From: a virus
Direction: 5' to 3' (one strand)
IMG/VR virus record: IMGVR_UViG_3300025785_001156
Coordinates: 1-21,695 of that record
DNA: 21,695 nucleotides
The position numbers and the translations under genes were made by a program. The stretch's first letter is position 1, and every line of letters starts with the position of its first letter. Shown piece after piece: positions 3,098 through 21,337 of the stretch. The notes beneath the pieces were generated by a model. That model ran no database searches and was not told the DNA's origin. It worked only from the letters and a program-made list of their open reading frames with translations.

Positions 3098-4147
3098 CTA
3101 CTTTGGTAATTTTTTTGCCATGACTTGATTGGCTTTGATCGTGCTTATCAGCCCAGGTTTTCGCAACTCTAGCCAGGTCCAAGGCCCACCGTCATTGAAT
3201 TCAAACTCCTTGGTATAACCAATACTTTCAGCCATGCCACGGATCAAGCGCCCCGGAGTATAACAGGCTGAAGTTCGCTCAACCAATTCGATAGCTTCAG
3301 GGCGATCGCAATCATTAAAGGTCATGATCAGGACACCACCAGGGCGTAACTTGGTGTAGAGTTCATTTAGATATTGTCGTATAATCTCAAAAGGCTTGTA
3401 GTTGAAAAAGTCGTAGGCCACACATACCAAAAATTGATTTTTGGGTATTGATACCAATATTTCTTGATCTGGCACTTCCTGTATCACATACTTGCGTAGG
3501 CGTCCTTGATAAGCATAGGGAAACTTGTTCAAGGCTGGCTCCAACAGTTCATAATGCTCGTCTACAATGTAGACCGGATCGTTGGCGACCATATGATGAA
3601 TCAAGTCACTTTTGCCAGGATGTATAAACATGGCTGGATATCGAGGATCTGCGTAACGACGGATACGTGCTTCCTGTAGTTCTCTAATTTTCTCCACTGG
3701 AGTGGGCAAGCGACTCATTATGTTTTCCAGCATATCCTTGCGTGTAGATTCCACGTTGCGATCCATGCCACGTCTAAGGATGCCGTAGTCGTCTCTATAA
3801 AAATCAGACTGATATTCGTTAAAGCCTCGCATTATGGAATTTTGTGATTCATACCACTGATAACTCTGTTGCAACAAAGGTTTTTCCTCTTCAGTGATAC
3901 GTTCCAGCAGTCGTTGTCTTATGTTTGCCAGATCCAACTCGAAATTATCCAAGGTGTCAAACACAGTTTGCTTGTGGTCACACAGTTTTTCAGCAAGATT
4001 TTTTCCATTAGATTCAAAAAATCCTATCTGTTGGGCCTGTATCACACTTATTATTCTGCTTAAATGCGTATCTGCAGACTGTCTGATGCTGTCTGAGGAG
4101 AAACGATCCAATTCATTGAGAAATGTTACCAGTTGGCTCAGTTTCAT
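3098..4147 (-). CDS. SAM-dependent methyltransferase-like protein with helical N-terminal half
   Basis: The protein has 349 residues. The N-terminal half (about 1-165) is long charged helices. The C-terminal half resembles a class I SAM methyltransferase: FLVCVAYDFFNY, then YTKLRPGGVLIMTFNDCDRPE, the usual post-motif-II signature in which LRPGG precedes a hydrophobic strand. The canonical glycine-rich motif I is not obvious, so activity is unproven and the substrate unknown. I chose ATG 4147-4145 (MKLSQLV), one base after the polymerase stop. The frame stays open to 4219, but that extension would overlap the polymerase by 71 bases and begins inside its C-terminal codons. It is co-transcribed with the polymerase and ends 49 bp before the clamp. 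Confidence 0.72.
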   Translation of the reverse strand: MKLSQLVTFLNELDRFSSDSIRQSADTHLSRIISVIQAQQIGFFESNGKNLAEKLCDHKQTVFDTLDNFELDLANIRQRLLERITEEEKPLLQQSYQWYESQNSIMRGFNEYQSDFYRDDYGILRRGMDRNVESTRKDMLENIMSRLPTPVEKIRELQEARIRRYADPRYPAMFIHPGKSDLIHHMVANDPVYIVDEHYELLEPALNKFPYAYQGRLRKYVIQEVPDQEILVSIPKNQFLVCVAYDFFNYKPFEIIRQYLNELYTKLRPGGVLIMTFNDCDRPEAIELVERTSACYTPGRLIRGMAESIGYTKEFEFNDGGPWTWLELRKPGLISTIKANQVMAKKLPK

Positions 4148-4148
4148 A

Positions 4149-6803
4149 TTACCACTCAAACAGGGCTTGGAATGTGTTTTCAGTATTGGTGGCCGCGGCC
4201 AGATCCCAGTCCAATACACTCAACAGGTTGTCTAGTTTTTGATCTACCACGGTAGCTTCCATCTCACCATCGTCAAATGGCAGATCTTTGAACCATTGTG
4301 GTAGATGTAGTTCATCTGTGGGATAGCCAATTGATGTCCAGCCCAAGGGATTTTGTTTTAGTTTACACACAATGGTTTTCATGCCATCTACAATCTGCAT
4401 GGAGTATTTGTCGCTATTCATACGACGCAGGTTGTTCCAGTTGAGTGCGGCACGCACATGTCCGGGCATGTTGGCTTTGCCTAGGCGTTCTTCTTCCTTG
4501 GCATACTTGGTTAGATTGTTGACACGCTTGGGTGATCCTTTTTCCCAACCTGGTCGCTCTTTGAACTTGTATTTGAACTCGCGAATCTTTTCAATGATCT
4601 GTTCTCTAGTGGCACCGATCAAGACATCGTTTAGGATCTCACTTAAAAACTCTTGGATTACCTTGGGAGTATCTGATCGCTTTAAGTCCAGACCCATGGC
4701 CTTGACCTTGCCCGGGCTTCCGTGTGTGTCCACACGCTTGTTCTCTTTGTCGTAATACATGACAGCATAACGCTTCTTGGTAATGAACAGGCCCTTGGAA
4801 GCCACAATCTCTCGACCGCCCCGGATCACACTACCCATTTCACGCGGCACATGGAACGCCTGTTCCATAAAGCCTGGAAAACTCTCATTGACTTGATCAG
4901 CAATCGAATTATACAGTTGAACTGCTGTTTCTCTAGTCCAGGTCATGTTGCCCTTTTCGATCTCGTCCTTCAGCACAGGATAAGCAGTAAAGTAACAGGA
5001 GTCTGTGTCACCATAGATAATGGCATCGCCCACGTGATCATACTTGCCGGTGATGCATTCGTTTACATAAGCATCCATGTGACGGGCAATCGCACGACCA
5101 GTAAGAGTTGTGGATTGGCCAATACGCTTGTCAAAGAAACGGCAACCAGGATTAAGAATAGCACCATAGAGACTGTTGAGGTTAATTTTCTTAACCAGTT
5201 GACGCTTGTCCCAATACTCTTCATCTTCTGCATTTTTACATTCCTTTAGTTTGGCCTGCATTTCTTTACGTTCTGCATACCAGCGTTTTAGCAAACCAGG
5301 GATAATACCTTCTTTTTCATAGGTAAAGATTGTGCCATTGGCACTGAGCATCCAGGGCTGGTTTGAGTCAAATATGATCTTCCATACTTCAGCCGCACTG
5401 TGAACTGATTCCTCACCGTCTTGCCAGTCAATGGTGATCTCTGTGCCGGTCTGCATTTCCATCACAGCGGTGTATTCTAAACTGCCGAACAGTCCTTCCC
5501 ATGCGGCCGCAAAGCTGGATCCAGAACGTATCTTGTCAGCAATATAACGGTCAGTCATGATGGGACGCAGTTGTCCCACAATGGTTTCTGGTCCCATGTT
5601 AAGCGCACGAATAGCACTTGGATAAAGACTGTTGATGTCTATGGACCCTACATATTCATGTATGCCCTTGCGTGGGTAAGCCACGTAGGCACCTGCAGCC
5701 TGAGTATCCTCATCTGAGTAACGTTCCTTGCGATTGGGCACAACCATGCCACGTTCGTGTGCTTCGTTGATGATGGCCTGTTCGGTCACAGCCACAGCAC
5801 CCATGGTGGTTTGTAGCAACACAGTGTTCTCATGTGCCAAGGTATTGGCCAGATCCAGGAACTTTAACTTCCGGTCCAGCTTGGCCAAGATCATGGTATC
5901 TTGTCTGTTGTACTCAATAAAGGTCTTGAAGTTTTGATTGTACAGTTGATCCAAGGTACCTTCAAACACAGTCTTGCTTTCTTGCAATTCGTATTCGGCA
6001 ATGGCATCTAGGCTATAGCTATGGCGTTCTTCGTAGGTATATTTTCTATACAGTTGCATATAGTCCATATGCACACGACCGATCAGGTCATAGGTCTGAC
6101 TCTCAGCACCAAAGCGTTCAAATGTACGGCCCTTGGGATACTGATTCCATAGACAAAAACGTCTAGTATCGTCCTTGCTCAGCACCCTGGTCACACGATT
6201 CACAGTGTAAGGTATGTCATAGCCCTCCGAATTCCAACCCGAGATAGCATCAGCATCTTCGATTAGATCCAGGAACGTTTTTAACATTTCACCTTCGTCG
6301 CGGAAGATGATGGTGTTTTCAAACTCGCCGGCAATTTCCTGCGCAGTGGCCTCGCTCATGTGCTTAGGCGGAACCACCAGAGTAACCAACTGTTCTAGCC
6401 ACTGTAGATAAACTGAGATAGCTGTTATGGGATTGAATGGATCTTCGGGCTTGCTGAATCCACGCTCAGGATCGAAGTCTACCTCAATGTCAAAAAACGC
6501 CACATTAAGTCGAGGCGCATCTTGGCCCTTGTAGTTGTCCTCTAGACAACGGAATACCGGATTGATATCGGACTCAAACAGTCGCTTGCTGGACTGCATC
6601 TTGAGTTCCTTACGGAATTCCTTGTTGTTGCGTGTTGAGAATCTACTGACGGGTGTTCCAAAAATACTTTGGAACTTGCCTCTGCCGTCTTCGTAATAAA
6701 AAATGTAGTTGGCCGGATACTCGCAATACTTCCGCTCGCCATCTCTGCGCTCAACCACATGTATGCGATCGTGTTCACGATCAAATAAGGCATCAATATA
6801 CAT
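4149..6803 (-). CDS. 43: Family-B DNA polymerase, T4 gp43-like
   Basis: The 884-residue length is close to T4 gp43 (898). 3'-5' exonuclease motifs: Exo I FFDIEV (D105, E107), Exo II GWNSEGYDIPY (D196), Exo III YNRQD (Y298, D302). Polymerase motifs: A SIDINSLYPS (D389), B KKINLNSLYG (about 538-547), C IYGDTDS (YGDTDS at 597-602). All catalytic acidic residues are present, so it should be an active proofreading replicase. The C-terminus ends NTFQALFEW, similar in character to the clamp-binding tail of T4 gp43. The ATG at 6803 has AAGGAG four bases upstream. The 81-bp leader contains a hairpin touching the ribosome-binding site, which suggests translational control. No intein, intron or split was seen. 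Confidence 0.97.
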   Translation of the reverse strand: MYIDALFDREHDRIHVVERRDGERKYCEYPANYIFYYEDGRGKFQSIFGTPVSRFSTRNNKEFRKELKMQSSKRLFESDINPVFRCLEDNYKGQDAPRLNVAFFDIEVDFDPERGFSKPEDPFNPITAISVYLQWLEQLVTLVVPPKHMSEATAQEIAGEFENTIIFRDEGEMLKTFLDLIEDADAISGWNSEGYDIPYTVNRVTRVLSKDDTRRFCLWNQYPKGRTFERFGAESQTYDLIGRVHMDYMQLYRKYTYEERHSYSLDAIAEYELQESKTVFEGTLDQLYNQNFKTFIEYNRQDTMILAKLDRKLKFLDLANTLAHENTVLLQTTMGAVAVTEQAIINEAHERGMVVPNRKERYSDEDTQAAGAYVAYPRKGIHEYVGSIDINSLYPSAIRALNMGPETIVGQLRPIMTDRYIADKIRSGSSFAAAWEGLFGSLEYTAVMEMQTGTEITIDWQDGEESVHSAAEVWKIIFDSNQPWMLSANGTIFTYEKEGIIPGLLKRWYAERKEMQAKLKECKNAEDEEYWDKRQLVKKINLNSLYGAILNPGCRFFDKRIGQSTTLTGRAIARHMDAYVNECITGKYDHVGDAIIYGDTDSCYFTAYPVLKDEIEKGNMTWTRETAVQLYNSIADQVNESFPGFMEQAFHVPREMGSVIRGGREIVASKGLFITKKRYAVMYYDKENKRVDTHGSPGKVKAMGLDLKRSDTPKVIQEFLSEILNDVLIGATREQIIEKIREFKYKFKERPGWEKGSPKRVNNLTKYAKEEERLGKANMPGHVRAALNWNNLRRMNSDKYSMQIVDGMKTIVCKLKQNPLGWTSIGYPTDELHLPQWFKDLPFDDGEMEATVVDQKLDNLLSVLDWDLAAATNTENTFQALFEW

Positions 6804-6807
6804 CGTT

Positions 6808-6830
6808 CTCCTTGTGGCTTATGGCCCACA
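6808..6830 (-). promoter_or_regulatory. Hairpin and RBS in the polymerase leader, like the gp43 translational operator
   Basis: In the mRNA sense the sequence is UGUGG - GCCAUAAG - CCACA, a perfect 5-bp stem (6830-6826 with 6817-6813) closing an 8-base loop. The last stem base is the first A of the Shine-Dalgarno AAGGAG (6813-6808), so folding or protein binding would hide the ribosome-binding site. T4 gp43 represses its own translation by binding a leader hairpin with a 5-bp stem and an 8-base loop (AAUAACUC) next to the Shine-Dalgarno. The architecture matches; the loop shares only AUAA. Function is inferred. Confidence 0.6.
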
Positions 6831-6868
6831 TACCTTGATTCATGTTCGTAACGTGAACGACTCGTTGT

Positions 6869-6883: not shown

Positions 6884-6911
6884 CTTATAAGGTCTTGCCT
6901 ACTGTGGTCAA
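6884..6911 (-). promoter_or_regulatory. Sigma-70-type promoter of the DNA polymerase gene
   Basis: TTGACC (6911-6906, 5/6 to the -35) is followed by 16 bases and TATAAG (6889-6884, 5/6 to the -10). It overlaps the last codons of the dsbA-like gene and would start transcription near 6877, giving a leader of about 75 bases that carries the RBS hairpin. The same -10 reads on as TATAAGTA, one mismatch from the late consensus, so late use is also possible. Confidence 0.5.
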
Positions 6912-7148
6912 AATTGTTTCCAACAGTTCATGATCTTGTTGTTCACGACCAAACTCGGCCTTGTGTGCCAGCTTGATGGCCTTCTTGAGAATATTGGGTT
7001 TGATGTCTAGTTCTTCGGCAATGGCCTTGATGGTGTCGTTGAGACCGCCGGTAAGTGTTTCAATCTCCAAGGTAACCTGCATACCTTCGTTGATGACCTG
7101 GGTCAATTTGGCCTGTTCTGCTGTGTTGAAAGTTCTGTTGTTTGACAT
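6885..7148 (-). CDS. dsbA: DsbA-like small dsDNA-binding protein
   Basis: The protein has 87 residues, close to the 89 of T4 DsbA. It opens MSNNRTFNTAEQAKL and is almost entirely helical, with the segment AIAEELDIKPNILKKAIKLAHKAEF, a helix-turn-helix-like piece typical of DsbA-like proteins annotated in T4-type marine phages. T4 DsbA binds double-stranded DNA near late promoters and modulates late transcription. The start is ATG 7148-7146 with a textbook AAAGGAG; the frame stays open to 7316 but that extension overlaps the radical-SAM gene and lacks an RBS. It has its own sigma-70-type promoter and is followed by the polymerase gene. Assignment rests on size, helix pattern and neighbourhood, not on strong identity. 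Confidence 0.65.
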   Translation of the reverse strand: MSNNRTFNTAEQAKLTQVINEGMQVTLEIETLTGGLNDTIKAIAEELDIKPNILKKAIKLAHKAEFGREQQDHELLETILTTVGKTL

Positions 7149-7169
7149 GTAAATCTCCTTTGATAAAAT

Positions 7170-7198
7170 ATTATACAGCACATCCTGATAGAAATCAA
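7170..7198 (-). promoter_or_regulatory. Sigma-70-type promoter of the dsbA-like gene
   Basis: TTGATT (7198-7193, 4/6 to the -35) is followed by exactly 17 bases and a perfect -10, TATAAT (7175-7170). The -35 overlaps the TGA stop of the radical-SAM gene. The stretch from the -10 to the ATG resembles the clamp promoter: about 8 bases, then CAAAGGAGAT, then the start codon. This would be a host-polymerase-read early or middle promoter with a very short leader. Confidence 0.68.
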
Positions 7199-8262
7199 GA
7201 GATTTTTGGCATACCGTGCCAAAATTCAGTATCTGGTAATCCTGATACAGACTTGAGCTGAGCCATGGCATCTGCATACAGATCGGAATCTTTGTGGTAC
7301 ACATCGATCTGGGCAAACTGATCCGTTGTGAATGTGCCCCAGTTGACTATGCGTTGGAACTGGACCGAATCGCAACCAAAGCCCTTGCTGAGATCATAAA
7401 AATCTCGCATCTCTTTGTAGTTGGCACGCTGTACTACCATACGAGCATTGAACTGCATTCCGTTTTGTGCCTTCTTGTCCTGTAGCCAGCGCATGGCCTG
7501 CATGATGTTGCTCCAGGCGCCACCACGTCTGAGTTGTTCATATGTTTCAGCTGTGGCGGCATCATAAGATATGGTTATCTTTTTTACATGACCCTGCATG
7601 TCGCCCATCCTGTGCCAACGATCCTCGCATAGTAAACCATTTGACAAGATATCTAGCTCTAGATTTGGAAAATCTTTACTGGGAATATTGGCCAAAAAAT
7701 CTAACAAAAATGCACTGGCAAAAAGATCACCGCCAGTGTCCAGGGTCAATACGATGCGCTGGTCAGTGGGTGTACCAAAAAGATTGCGAGCCACTATGGC
7801 CGATAGTTGTGTTTGGCGTTCCTTGGTCTCGTAATCGTTTTTGAGCACTGTATGTCTGCAACTGGGGCACCAGAGATTGCAGGTGCGATCCATGGACAAG
7901 GTAATATAGTGTGGCACCAGGAATCTAGCAGGATCCTCTACTGCCCAGGCTACCTCGGGCGACAGGTTTTCAACAGTGTTGAGACCATTGGTTCTCAGTA
8001 TGCCGCACTTGTCTGGATCGCAGTAGATATATGTGCCATCTATGATGCTTTGCCGTATGCTTTGGGCCATGCTCCCGGCCAAGAGGTCAGCCAGGTTGTT
8101 ATCAAATATGTTGCCAATACGGGTAGGTTGCCAGGTAGAACAACCACAGATACCCACAAAGCCGTCGGCATCCACATTGATCTGCACAAATGGACTGAGA
8201 CAGTATTTTCCCTTGAGGTCCTGCGCAGGAAAGGTAGTAATTGGAATGATTTTTTTCAGCAT
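7195..8262 (-). CDS. Radical SAM protein with N-terminal SPASM-like Cys cluster
   Basis: The protein has 355 residues. The radical-SAM cluster motif is CNLWCPSC (C128, C132, C135; CxxxCxxC), which binds the [4Fe-4S] that cleaves S-adenosylmethionine. Downstream strands include LTLDTGGDLFAS and ITISYDAAT, as in the partial TIM barrel. Before it, residues 21-86 carry C21, C39, C41, C81 and C86, in a context (CLSPFVQINVDADGFVGICGC) like SPASM auxiliary-cluster domains that bind extra Fe-S clusters. SPASM normally follows the radical-SAM core, so here the order is reversed. The substrate is unknown; peptides or sugar-linked molecules are typical. The ATG at 8262 directly follows the stop of the acyltransferase-like gene, so the two form an operon under the late promoter at 8883-8890. 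Confidence 0.85.
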   Translation of the reverse strand: MLKKIIPITTFPAQDLKGKYCLSPFVQINVDADGFVGICGCSTWQPTRIGNIFDNNLADLLAGSMAQSIRQSIIDGTYIYCDPDKCGILRTNGLNTVENLSPEVAWAVEDPARFLVPHYITLSMDRTCNLWCPSCRHTVLKNDYETKERQTQLSAIVARNLFGTPTDQRIVLTLDTGGDLFASAFLLDFLANIPSKDFPNLELDILSNGLLCEDRWHRMGDMQGHVKKITISYDAATAETYEQLRRGGAWSNIMQAMRWLQDKKAQNGMQFNARMVVQRANYKEMRDFYDLSKGFGCDSVQFQRIVNWGTFTTDQFAQIDVYHKDSDLYADAMAQLKSVSGLPDTEFWHGMPKIS

Positions 8263-8847
8263 CTATGTGATCTTTCTAGCTCGCCGACCAGCATATCGTC
8301 CTGGCTGATCCACATCACATATGACATTGCTGAATGCCTGTACCTGGACTGAATCAGCCACCTGAACCTGATTGGTCACTGTTGATCTTAGATTAAAAAC
8401 ACAGTGATCCCCTACTTGACTCTTGCCTGTGACGATCACCGACGGTCGCAACACACAGTTGCGACCAATCTGTGCATGATGTCCGATCATGCTGTAGGCC
8501 GCCAGGACACAGTGACGTCCCACTGTAGCCGCTAGGCCTATGTTGCAGAATGGAAAAACAAAAGTGCCGCCACCAATGGTTGTTTGATCGGCTATCACGG
8601 CAGAGTCATGTATTACTGTGACCAGATCCTGTTGATCTATCTGATCAATGATAGCCCGACGTTCTGGAAAATCTACATTTAACGATACTATGTACTGGAA
8701 TTGCGATGGATCCGCCAAGACACAAAACTGCTCAGGTGTCATGACCTGGCAGGCGTGAGTGCGCTGTATCTCTGCAACAAATTCCTGTGTTAGAGATGAC
8801 TCAGCATAGCCAATGACGCGGATGGGTTTGTTGTTGCCAATGATCAA
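8263..8847 (-). CDS. NeuD-like hexapeptide-repeat acyltransferase
   Basis: The protein has 194 residues. Residues about 1-75 form an alpha/beta N-terminal part like the nucleotide-sugar-binding domain of sialic-acid O-acetyltransferase NeuD/PglD relatives (RVIGYAESSLTQEF at the start). From about residue 80, imperfect hexapeptide repeats follow: VIADQT-TIGGGT-FVFPFC-NIGLAA-TVGRHC-VLAAYS-MIGHHA-QIGRNC-VLRPSV, and so on. These build a left-handed beta-helix that works as a trimer with acetyl-CoA at the subunit interface. The likely role is acylation of a sugar or sugar nucleotide; the target is unknown. The start is TTG 8847-8845 with GTGAG upstream; no ATG or GTG is in frame nearby. A perfect late promoter lies 35 bases upstream. 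Confidence 0.83.
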   Translation of the reverse strand: MIIGNNKPIRVIGYAESSLTQEFVAEIQRTHACQVMTPEQFCVLADPSQFQYIVSLNVDFPERRAIIDQIDQQDLVTVIHDSAVIADQTTIGGGTFVFPFCNIGLAATVGRHCVLAAYSMIGHHAQIGRNCVLRPSVIVTGKSQVGDHCVFNLRSTVTNQVQVADSVQVQAFSNVICDVDQPGRYAGRRARKIT

Positions 8848-19320: not shown

Positions 19321-20600
19321 CAGCAGTTCCAGCGACGACGTGCTTTACAGATGGCCTTGTCGGGAGTTTTGGCACACGAAATGTTGTGCATTTTCATTTG
19401 ACCTTTGGATCTTGAGCAGTAGCTCTTGCGACGTTTGCTGGCTTTTGAACCCTTCTTTAGCTTGCTAGGTTTGGTAGTTACCGCTGTTTGTAACTTAGAT
19501 CCTGGATGTTCTCTGCGATAGGCTTTTACTGCCTTACGACTCATGCCATCTGTCTTGTCTCGATTGTTGGCCTTTTGCCAGGCTTCGGTTTCATTTACGG
19601 CTTGAGTAGATCTTTTTGATCGGGCAAATTCTTTTTGCGTTTCTTGATCTGCCAACTGTATAAGGGCCTGTGCCAAAACACTATAACTCAGTCCTTGTGT
19701 TTGTCGATCTAATTGTCTAGCTTTTTGACTCTCCTGATTGATAAAATCTATTACATTCTTATTTGCTCCAATTTTTTGCAATAAGGCAACTTCAGGAAGG
19801 ATGTAGTGTGATAACCACGCATTACCATTGGCATGTCCATGGCGTGCAACGGTTATACAGTTCCGTTTTAATCGGTCTAGTGTATCAATATATTGTGTGT
19901 TAAGCTGTGATTTTGTTGACTCAGTTTCCATGATGGTGCTGGTGGTGGCAAACACATACAGCTCATCGTCATCCAAGCTCTCTAAGTCTTCCCAGATCAC
20001 TTCACTATCAACTCCGTTGCTGGCAGCCAAGTCTTCAATAATGCTTTCGATCAGGTCGAACTCTTTGGCCAGTTCTGCGTCTTCCGCCACACCTTGCTTC
20101 ATACAATGCTTTAATTCTGCTACAGCTTCCTCATAGGAATCATATCCAGCCAGATCGTTGCCTGAAGCATAATGTTTCATATAATACTGACCAACACCAG
20201 GACTTGACTCGCGATCAATACCAACCTCACCTACTGGTTCACCGTTTTTCTTAAACACTTTGCGTTGTTGGTCTGCATGACCTTCTGCTACACTTTCGTT
20301 GGGCACACAGTTACGCACCAAGCCACCGTTTTTACCGCGCTTGGTACCTTCGGCATGTTTGCCGGGCCAGCAACGAGTGTAACCGTTGGCATCTTTTTGA
20401 CCCTTACGGATCTCATTTAAGTTGCCGTGTGTTTGACACATGCCACAGTCTTCGCAGACCATTTCCATCTCGATGCTTTCGTTGTGCTTCTTCTTGCCGG
20501 CACAGTGAGCACGTTGTGAGAAGCCCTTAGGATGGCTACAGTTGATACTGTTCTTGTATTTTTGGCTCCACTTTTCAGTGATGAATTCGTTAGCTTTCAT
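19320..20600 (-). CDS. Cys/Lys-rich modular protein with targeting-like N-terminus
   Basis: The protein has 426 residues and begins MKANEFITEKWSQKYK. Module 1 (about 9-40) is KYKNSINCSHPKGFSQRAHCAG, a two-Cys basic motif. A CEDCGMC cluster follows, then a GYTRCWPGKHAEG piece. VAE-GHADQQRKVF and VAE-DAELAKEFDL begin two further modules, helices follow, then VNE-TEAWQKANNRDKTDG. A basic C-terminal module ends RRKSYCSRSKGQMKM...ICKARRRWNC. Such Cys/Lys modules recur, as I recall, in aquatic phage proteins of unknown function; they could bind DNA or zinc. ATG 20600-20598 shares a base with the upstream stop (TAATG) and has AGGAG upstream. The (V/I)xE sites suggest cleavage into pieces. Confidence 0.78.
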   Translation of the reverse strand: MKANEFITEKWSQKYKNSINCSHPKGFSQRAHCAGKKKHNESIEMEMVCEDCGMCQTHGNLNEIRKGQKDANGYTRCWPGKHAEGTKRGKNGGLVRNCVPNESVAEGHADQQRKVFKKNGEPVGEVGIDRESSPGVGQYYMKHYASGNDLAGYDSYEEAVAELKHCMKQGVAEDAELAKEFDLIESIIEDLAASNGVDSEVIWEDLESLDDDELYVFATTSTIMETESTKSQLNTQYIDTLDRLKRNCITVARHGHANGNAWLSHYILPEVALLQKIGANKNVIDFINQESQKARQLDRQTQGLSYSVLAQALIQLADQETQKEFARSKRSTQAVNETEAWQKANNRDKTDGMSRKAVKAYRREHPGSKLQTAVTTKPSKLKKGSKASKRRKSYCSRSKGQMKMHNISCAKTPDKAICKARRRWNC

Positions 20601-21337
20601 TACCAACTCCTATATTTTCTTCTGTTTTCTTTTGCCCACTGATCCTGTTTTGCAAATCTTTCTTGATCGGCAGCATATCTAGCTTTCATCTGGGCTAGAG
20701 TTTTTATGTCATCTGGGGTGGCGGGCTCTGCCAATCGATCATACTTACCACTGGATGTTTGTATAACAGGTCTTACACCCAGCTTGGGCTTATTAACCAC
20801 TGCGGTCGCAGGTGCCGGTTCTGGTGGACGTGGCGCAGGCACTCGAGTTGGATCCACGAACGGTTCCAACTGATCGGCTCTGACAGGGTGGCGCATTTTG
20901 CGCAGTGCTTTGGCCTCAATCTGTCGTATACGCTCGCGACTGAGACCCATAAATTTGGCAACCTGCTCCAGGTTCATGTCATTGAAAAATCTCTGTGTCA
21001 GCACGCTGCGCTCAACTGGTTTCAATGAGCTCATAGTAGATTTAAGGGCGGCTCTGAGTCGATCAAGATCGATCTTATCTTCCAGTTTTTCCAACTCATC
21101 ATCTGCCGGTATGTCCATTGGTTCTGGGTCAGCCATAGGAACCGGCGCAGACAGAGAGTTTTTGCCACCATAGTAGCGACGCTCGGGATCCTGGCGGGCC
21201 GACATGGTGCGCTGGGCTTTTTGTTTCCAGTCTTGACCCATCTGCTTGACGTCATAAGGACTGACAGTGGACGGCGGCGTAGAAGGATTCCAATAGCGGT
21301 ATTGGCTAACTTCTGTGATGAATTCTGTAGCTCTCAT
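20600..21337 (-). CDS. Sigma-70 region-4-only protein with targeting-like N-terminus
   Basis: The protein has 245 residues and begins MRATEFITEVSQYRYW. Residues about 90-155 are a sigma-70 region 4: helices then a helix-turn-helix (NLEQVAKFMGLSRERIRQIEAKALRKMRHP, 122-151) very close to region 4.2 of housekeeping sigma factors, which contacts the -35 element and the beta-flap of RNA polymerase. Regions 1-3 are absent. The flanks are low-complexity Pro/Ala/Gln/Lys-rich (APRPPEPAPATA). It could compete with host sigma region 4, replace it at phage promoters (as T4 gp33 does structurally), or act after delivery. ATG 21337 overlaps the upstream stop (ATGA). Nothing like gp55 is in the window. Confidence 0.85.
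   Translation of the reverse strand: MRATEFITEVSQYRYWNPSTPPSTVSPYDVKQMGQDWKQKAQRTMSARQDPERRYYGGKNSLSAPVPMADPEPMDIPADDELEKLEDKIDLDRLRAALKSTMSSLKPVERSVLTQRFFNDMNLEQVAKFMGLSRERIRQIEAKALRKMRHPVRADQLEPFVDPTRVPAPRPPEPAPATAVVNKPKLGVRPVIQTSSGKYDRLAEPATPDDIKTLAQMKARYAADQERFAKQDQWAKENRRKYRSW

What the first reader, a model, noticed from the sequence alone, without database searches (positions are those of the whole stretch)
6808..6830. gp43-type autogenous operator hairpin upstream of the polymerase
A perfect 5-bp stem with an 8-base loop (GCCAUAAG) abuts the AAGGAG ribosome-binding site of the polymerase. T4 and RB69 gp43 repress their own translation through a hairpin of the same geometry. The loop differs, sharing only AUAA, which suggests a diverged but conserved autoregulatory circuit.
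Basis: partly seen in the sequence, partly recalled or inferred. Interest (0 to 1): 0.62.

Follow-up and report, generated by a model that had tools for sequence, protein, structure and literature searches.

The report
Pseudoknotted operator before phage DNA polymerase
Just before the start of its DNA polymerase gene this large virus of bacteria carries a small folded RNA (two hairpins plus a likely knot), kept by evolution in many relatives and found nowhere else in their genomes, that probably lets the polymerase limit its own production, much as phage T4 does with a simpler hairpin.

Summary
The hairpin is real: minus strand, 6830-6813, UGUGG-GCCAUAAG-CCACA, directly on the AAGGAG ribosome-binding site of a T4-type family B DNA polymerase. 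It is one part of a conserved 53-nt element (6864-6812): hairpin P1, a conserved CAUGNA...GGY segment, then hairpin P2 with an 8-nt loop, (G/A)C(C/U)-N-Y-A-A-N. P1 and P2 show strong compensatory change over 54 distinct leaders. The loop's first three bases pair with GGY upstream in all 40 distinct cores, including a double change (GGY/GCC to AGU/GCU) in three divergent leaders, so P2 is very likely half of a compact H-type pseudoknot. 66 of the 80 closest relatives have the element; 22 of 30 long contigs (up to 337 kb) hold one strong copy each; 110 of 110 distinct copies precede the polymerase, directly or through one cargo ORF whose stop usually overlaps or abuts the polymerase start. It is absent from Rfam, bacterial genomes and the cultured relatives checked. 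It is a new cis-regulatory RNA family controlling polymerase translation. Autogenous repression as by gp43 is the best guess (about 55%), untested. Geometry and the loop's YAA recall T4/RB69/RB49; pseudoknot, P1 and loop register do not.

The parts
6812..6864 (-). Core structured RNA element (model R1, 53 positions)
   Evidence: cmsearch 73.3 bits, E 2.9e-24; covariation
6844..6858 (-). Hairpin P1: GUUC(A)-CGUUA-(C)GAAC; four Watson-Crick pairs plus an A.C fifth position that is C-G or G-C in some relatives
   Evidence: four of five pairs change on both sides in relatives
6841..6844 (-). CAUG at the 3' edge of P1, start of the conserved CAUGNANNANGGY segment
   Evidence: alignment A2
6832..6834 (-). 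GGU: 5' strand of the proposed pseudoknot helix, pairs with loop bases 6825-6823
   Evidence: 100% paired in 40 distinct cores; compensatory AGU/GCU in three; Fisher p 2e-5, not corrected for relatedness
6813..6830 (-).
6818..6825 (-). 8-nt P2 loop GCCAUAAG; G-C-C in the pseudoknot, then N-Y-A-A-N
   Evidence: loop statistics over 110 distinct elements
6808..6813 (-). Shine-Dalgarno AAGGAG overlapping P2 by one base
   Evidence: sequence
4149..6803 (-). T4-type family B DNA polymerase, 884 aa, the regulated gene
   Evidence: Pfam PF00136/PF03104, phrog_262, RB69 gp43
6885..7151 (-). Upstream DsbA-like small protein, 88 aa; neighbour, not the partner of the element
   Evidence: Pfam Phage_DsbA E 0.006, below its cut-off; phrog_639 'transcriptional regulator'; cargo genes separate it from the element in five relatives

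Best explanation
The leader is a translational operator of the phage's own DNA polymerase gene. Shown by comparison: a conserved RNA of two hairpins, P2 ending on the Shine-Dalgarno, dedicated to the polymerase gene and kept with it through gene insertions. Strongly suggested: P2's loop pairs with GGY upstream to form a short H-type pseudoknot whose second stem touches or includes the Shine-Dalgarno. Inferred: free polymerase, when not engaged on DNA, binds this RNA (the Y-A-A bases and P1 are the likely contacts), holds it folded and blocks the 30S subunit, so that polymerase level follows demand, as T4 gp43 does with its own simpler hairpin.
For: Covariation of P1 and P2 and of P2 plus pseudoknot. 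One strong copy (41-77 bits) in each of 22 of 30 long viral records, next best about 15 bits; a pattern scan of IMG/VR gave 116 parsed loci that lead to a polymerase start, a few through a cargo ORF; 110 of 110 distinct elements precede the polymerase, 10 of them through one ORF or insert. When cargo lies between dsbA and polymerase (L131, L089, L139, L092, L148) the element stays on the polymerase start codon. When cargo lies between element and polymerase (marine ~200-aa family, HNH in L024/L202, L009, L034, L270, L277/L280/L100, L416) the polymerase start overlaps or abuts the cargo stop, so coupling can keep it under the element. An element confined to one gene argues for feedback by the product. 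The enzyme is gp43-type; gp43 operators of T4 and RB69 have 8-nt loops with UAAC, RB49 has UAAA, and RB69's hairpin also abuts the Shine-Dalgarno (PMC3014915).
Against: No binding or repression data. The conserved AA may serve A-minor contacts inside the pseudoknot rather than protein recognition, which would make the T4 resemblance a coincidence. YAA is at loop positions 5-7 here and 3-5 in T4/RB69. Twelve of the 80 closest polymerases have no element in their leader, and eight cultured relatives lack it. The compensatory pseudoknot changes may be a single ancestral event.
Confidence: 0.55

Rival explanations
1. The element is a translational operator for the polymerase but is bound by another phage protein (DsbA-like neighbour, a RegA-like repressor, or a single-strand binding protein), not by the polymerase.
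For: T4 RegA and gp32 are translational repressors in the same pathway (PMC3014915); dsbA is the usual upstream neighbour.
Against: A general repressor should have several targets, but only one strong copy per genome is seen. Cargo separates dsbA from the element in five relatives while the element stays with the polymerase.
Confidence: 0.15
2. It is a riboswitch: the compact pseudoknot binds a small molecule (for example a nucleotide) and gates the Shine-Dalgarno.
For: A small pseudoknot with an A-containing loop across a short helix and the Shine-Dalgarno next to the second stem is the layout of several small riboswitches (own knowledge); strongly conserved unpaired bases.
Against: Riboswitches usually sit before several genes of a pathway; here only the polymerase carries it. 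No Rfam match, even at a permissive threshold.
Confidence: 0.1
3. It is a constitutive element: a translation enhancer, stabiliser or processing site of the polymerase mRNA with no feedback.
For: Conservation beside the ribosome-binding site would fit; P1 could be a stabilising hairpin.
Against: A specific loop with near-invariant bases and a pseudoknot is more than stabilisation needs, and 3-bp forms of P2 use two Gs of the Shine-Dalgarno in the stem, which suits repression.
Confidence: 0.12
4. The plain reading of the first reader: a simple T4-type hairpin operator descended from the T4 one.
For: Same enzyme family, 8-nt loop, abuts the Shine-Dalgarno as in RB69.
Against: Pseudoknot, P1, variable stem, different loop register; no element in eight cultured relatives checked.
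Confidence: 0.08

Closest known systems
gp43 translational operator of phages T4, RB69, RB49
   Same: Upstream of a T4-type family B DNA polymerase, touching the translation start region, hairpin with 8-nt loop (T4 AGCCU-AAUAACUC-GGGCU, RB69 AGAC-AAUAACUC-GUCU), Y-A-A in the loop (UAAC, SELEX CAAC, RB49 UAAA; PMC3014915).
   Different: Here the loop's first three bases pair upstream (pseudoknot), there is a second covarying hairpin P1, the stem is 3-7 bp, YAA is two positions later in the loop. Binding by the polymerase is unknown here.
T4/T2/RB69 gene 32 autoregulatory pseudoknot
   Same: Coaxially stacked pseudoknot in the leader of a replication gene that is repressed by its own product (PMC3014915, PMC535899).
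   Different: Different gene; there the pseudoknot lies upstream of an A+U-rich gp32 site at the ribosome-binding site; here it abuts the Shine-Dalgarno itself.
STAXI motif (Weinberg 2010, PMC2864571)
   Same: Small pseudoknot, in tandem, near genes for DNA-handling proteins; tandem modules also occur here in L370, L386, L387.
   Different: Usually two or three copies and near many genes; no Rfam family matches this element.

Membership tests
T4 gp43 operator | Lies in the leader of a T4-type family B polymerase and reaches the ribosome-binding site | tested here: met
T4 gp43 operator | Hairpin with an 8-nt loop | tested here: met
   8 nt in the window and in leaders listed without a loop-length requirement; the finder required 8 nt
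T4 gp43 operator | 5-bp stem | tested here: inconclusive
   5 bp in the window, 3-7 bp among relatives
T4 gp43 operator | Loop sequence AAUAACUC (UAAC at loop positions 3-6) | tested here: not met
   GCC-N-Y-A-A-N; YAA at positions 5-7
T4 gp43 operator | Plain hairpin, no evidence of a pseudoknot | tested here: not met
   GGY/GCC helix, compensated in three divergent leaders
T4 gp43 operator | Bound by its own polymerase, which represses translation | not testable with these tools
   needs binding and reporter assays
T4 gene 32 pseudoknot | Leader of a single-strand binding protein gene | tested here: not met
   the gene is a DNA polymerase
Any Rfam 15 family | Covariance-model match | tested here: not met
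   none at gathering threshold, none up to E 5
Riboswitch | Ligand-dependent structure change | not testable with these tools
   gene distribution argues against

The most novel reading that the evidence does not exclude
A small pseudoknot riboswitch that senses a nucleotide pool and sets the amount of a phage replicative DNA polymerase.
Probability: 0.1. Interest if true: 0.8.

Novelty: new variant of a known kind. Interest (0 to 1): 0.5.

Why it matters
Polymerase self-repression through an mRNA hairpin is a textbook case known from T4 and a few close relatives. If this element works the same way, the circuit, or an independent version of it with a pseudoknot, runs in a large, mostly uncultured group of phages known from metagenomes. 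The many natural variants, including 3-bp stems, tandem modules and cargo insertions that keep translational coupling, give a ready mutational series. The element also has no Rfam entry, so these leaders are currently unannotated.

Tried and rejected
Thermodynamic significance of the single leader: none. Short upstream ORF from the conserved CAUG: rejected, because many relatives read AUGUAG (immediate stop) and L048, L349, L374 and L444 lack the AUG. Further upstream hairpin P0 (6881-6869, UUGUU-uuc-AACAA): seen in many relatives but missing where cargo precedes the element, so not counted as core. Element belonging to dsbA (3' end structure): rejected by cargo insertions. Element in bacterial genomes: 19 pattern matches in GTDB contigs, best 15 bits against 41-78 for real ones, so chance. 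Element in cultured phages: none by model at the polymerase of eight relatives and T4, none by blastn. Second copies elsewhere in the same genomes: nothing above about 15 bits. Known intron family in L305: no Rfam match. Weinberg 2010 does not mention DNA polymerase in its main text; the 2017 list of 224 motifs was not available, so an earlier description cannot be excluded.

Full report
What was claimed. A 5-bp hairpin with loop GCCAUAAG touches the ribosome-binding site of a DNA polymerase and may be a T4 gp43-type autogenous operator.

What is in the window. The polymerase is 4149-6803 on the minus strand, a family B enzyme with phrog_262 over its whole length and RB69 gp43 as best solved relative (E 8e-64). 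Read on the minus strand the leader is ...GAG UCG UUC ACGUUAC GAAC AUGAAUCAAGGU A UGUGG GCCAUAAG CCACA AGGAG AACG AUG. The hairpin is exactly where stated. Its folding energy is ordinary, so comparison has to decide.

Relatives. A polymerase search of IMG/VR gave 80 loci of 79-100% identity. Their leaders show the same layout: UCG, hairpin P1, CAUGNANNANGGY, a linker, P2 with an 8-nt loop, Shine-Dalgarno, start. By my count over those 80: 63 have it directly before the polymerase, 3 before a cargo ORF that precedes the polymerase (L009, L024, L034), 2 have a P2-like hairpin only (L053, L055), 12 have none. Most of the 12 without have another gene or almost no gap in front of the polymerase.

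Structure. On 54 distinct leaders (A2) P1 has four of five pairs changed on both sides and P2 all five; overall 95 double-changed cells against 29 +/- 7 shuffled, and sliding controls fall to 3-20. The structure was read from these same leaders, so some lean towards it is expected, but the slid versions use the same rows. P2 is 3 bp in one group (CCG/CGG, CCA/UGG, where two Gs of GGAG lie in the stem) and 4-7 bp in others. More distant loci show P1 replaced by longer bulged helices while P2 and the GGY segment persist.

Pseudoknot. In A2 GGY and the loop's GCC hardly vary. Wider sampling gave 110 distinct elements, reduced to 40 distinct cores of GGY triplet, inner stem and loop. These cores are joined strings with the linker left out, the triplet was picked by a pattern that allows GGY or AGY only, and one triplet (L459) was reassigned by hand from AGC to GGU. 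All 40 pair in both helices; three cores have AGU with GCU in place of GGY with GCC (L034, L077, L439), and one has GGU with ACC; L397 also reads GGU with ACC by eye. Fisher p is 2e-5 before allowing for relatedness. The three share a shorter AUGNAGAGU spacing and may be one event. The pair nearest P2 varies only between C-G, U-G and U-A. Geometry (mostly a 1-4 nt linker, no gap between the stems, 5 nt returning) fits an H-type pseudoknot. I hold it likely, not proven.

Specificity. Model R1 over 30 long records (22-337 kb) gives one hit of 41-77 bits in 22, and nothing else above about 15 bits. Of 110 distinct elements 99 have the polymerase within 80 nt, 10 after one ORF or insert, and the last (L395) is a polymerase that the search expression missed. 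Because many loci were fetched by polymerase or dsbA queries, the unbiased evidence on specificity is the whole-record search and the pattern scan. The same pattern in 257 Gb of bacterial and archaeal contigs gives only chance matches. Rfam has nothing.

Natural insertions. Cargo between dsbA and polymerase leaves the element on the polymerase start (five relatives). Cargo between element and polymerase takes over the element's Shine-Dalgarno, and in each class looked at the polymerase start overlaps or directly abuts the cargo stop (ATGA, TTGA, TAATG, TAATTG), which would keep the polymerase coupled to the element. L305 is the exception: an endonuclease-like ORF on the other strand separates them. 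This pattern is what a translation operator of the polymerase predicts. Overlapping starts are common in phages, so it is supporting evidence, not a test.

Who binds it. Not shown. Product feedback is the simplest account of an element confined to one gene, and gp43 of T4, RB69 and RB49 does this with loops that carry UAAC or UAAA, SELEX also giving CAAC (PMC3014915). Here the base before AA is U or C in 109 of 110; AA was required by the finder, so its invariance is by construction, but leader lists made without that requirement show AA in nearly all, with L013 (GCCAUACC) as an exception. The conserved As could instead make A-minor contacts. T4 and RB69 leaders were read directly; the RB49 loop assignment is from the review.

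Verdict. Observation confirmed. Interpretation partly supported: a real cis-regulatory RNA, not listed in Rfam, of a T4-type polymerase that probably works like the gp43 operator but fails two of its tested features (loop sequence and register, absence of pseudoknot) and so is not filed as a member.

Noticed in passing
window about 6766-6787 (-), polymerase codons for FDREHDR: The palindrome GATCGTGAACACGATC early in the polymerase gene shows raised synonymous-site conservation (GAT 60/63, CAC in all 58 with H, GAT 61/63); it could be a second RNA hairpin or a DNA site.
   Followed up: partly
L305 about 3415-4248 on its minus strand: A 261-aa endonuclease-like ORF inserted on the opposite strand exactly at the element/polymerase-start junction.
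   Followed up: partly
L024 1358-2029, L202: An HNH-like ORF starts at the place of the polymerase start codon and uses the element's Shine-Dalgarno.
   Followed up: partly
L370, L386, L387 upstream of 1501: Two GGY-plus-hairpin modules in tandem (for example GGC-GUCG-GCCAUAAG-CGAC then GGU-UGUCA-GCCUCAAA-UGACA) where P1 would be.
   Followed up: partly
window 20600-21337 (-): Protein with sigma-70 region 4 (Pfam E 1e-17), possibly a phage sigma factor.
   Followed up: no
window 7195-8262 and 8263-8847 (-): Radical SAM/SPASM protein and hexapeptide-repeat transferase beside the replication genes.
   Followed up: no
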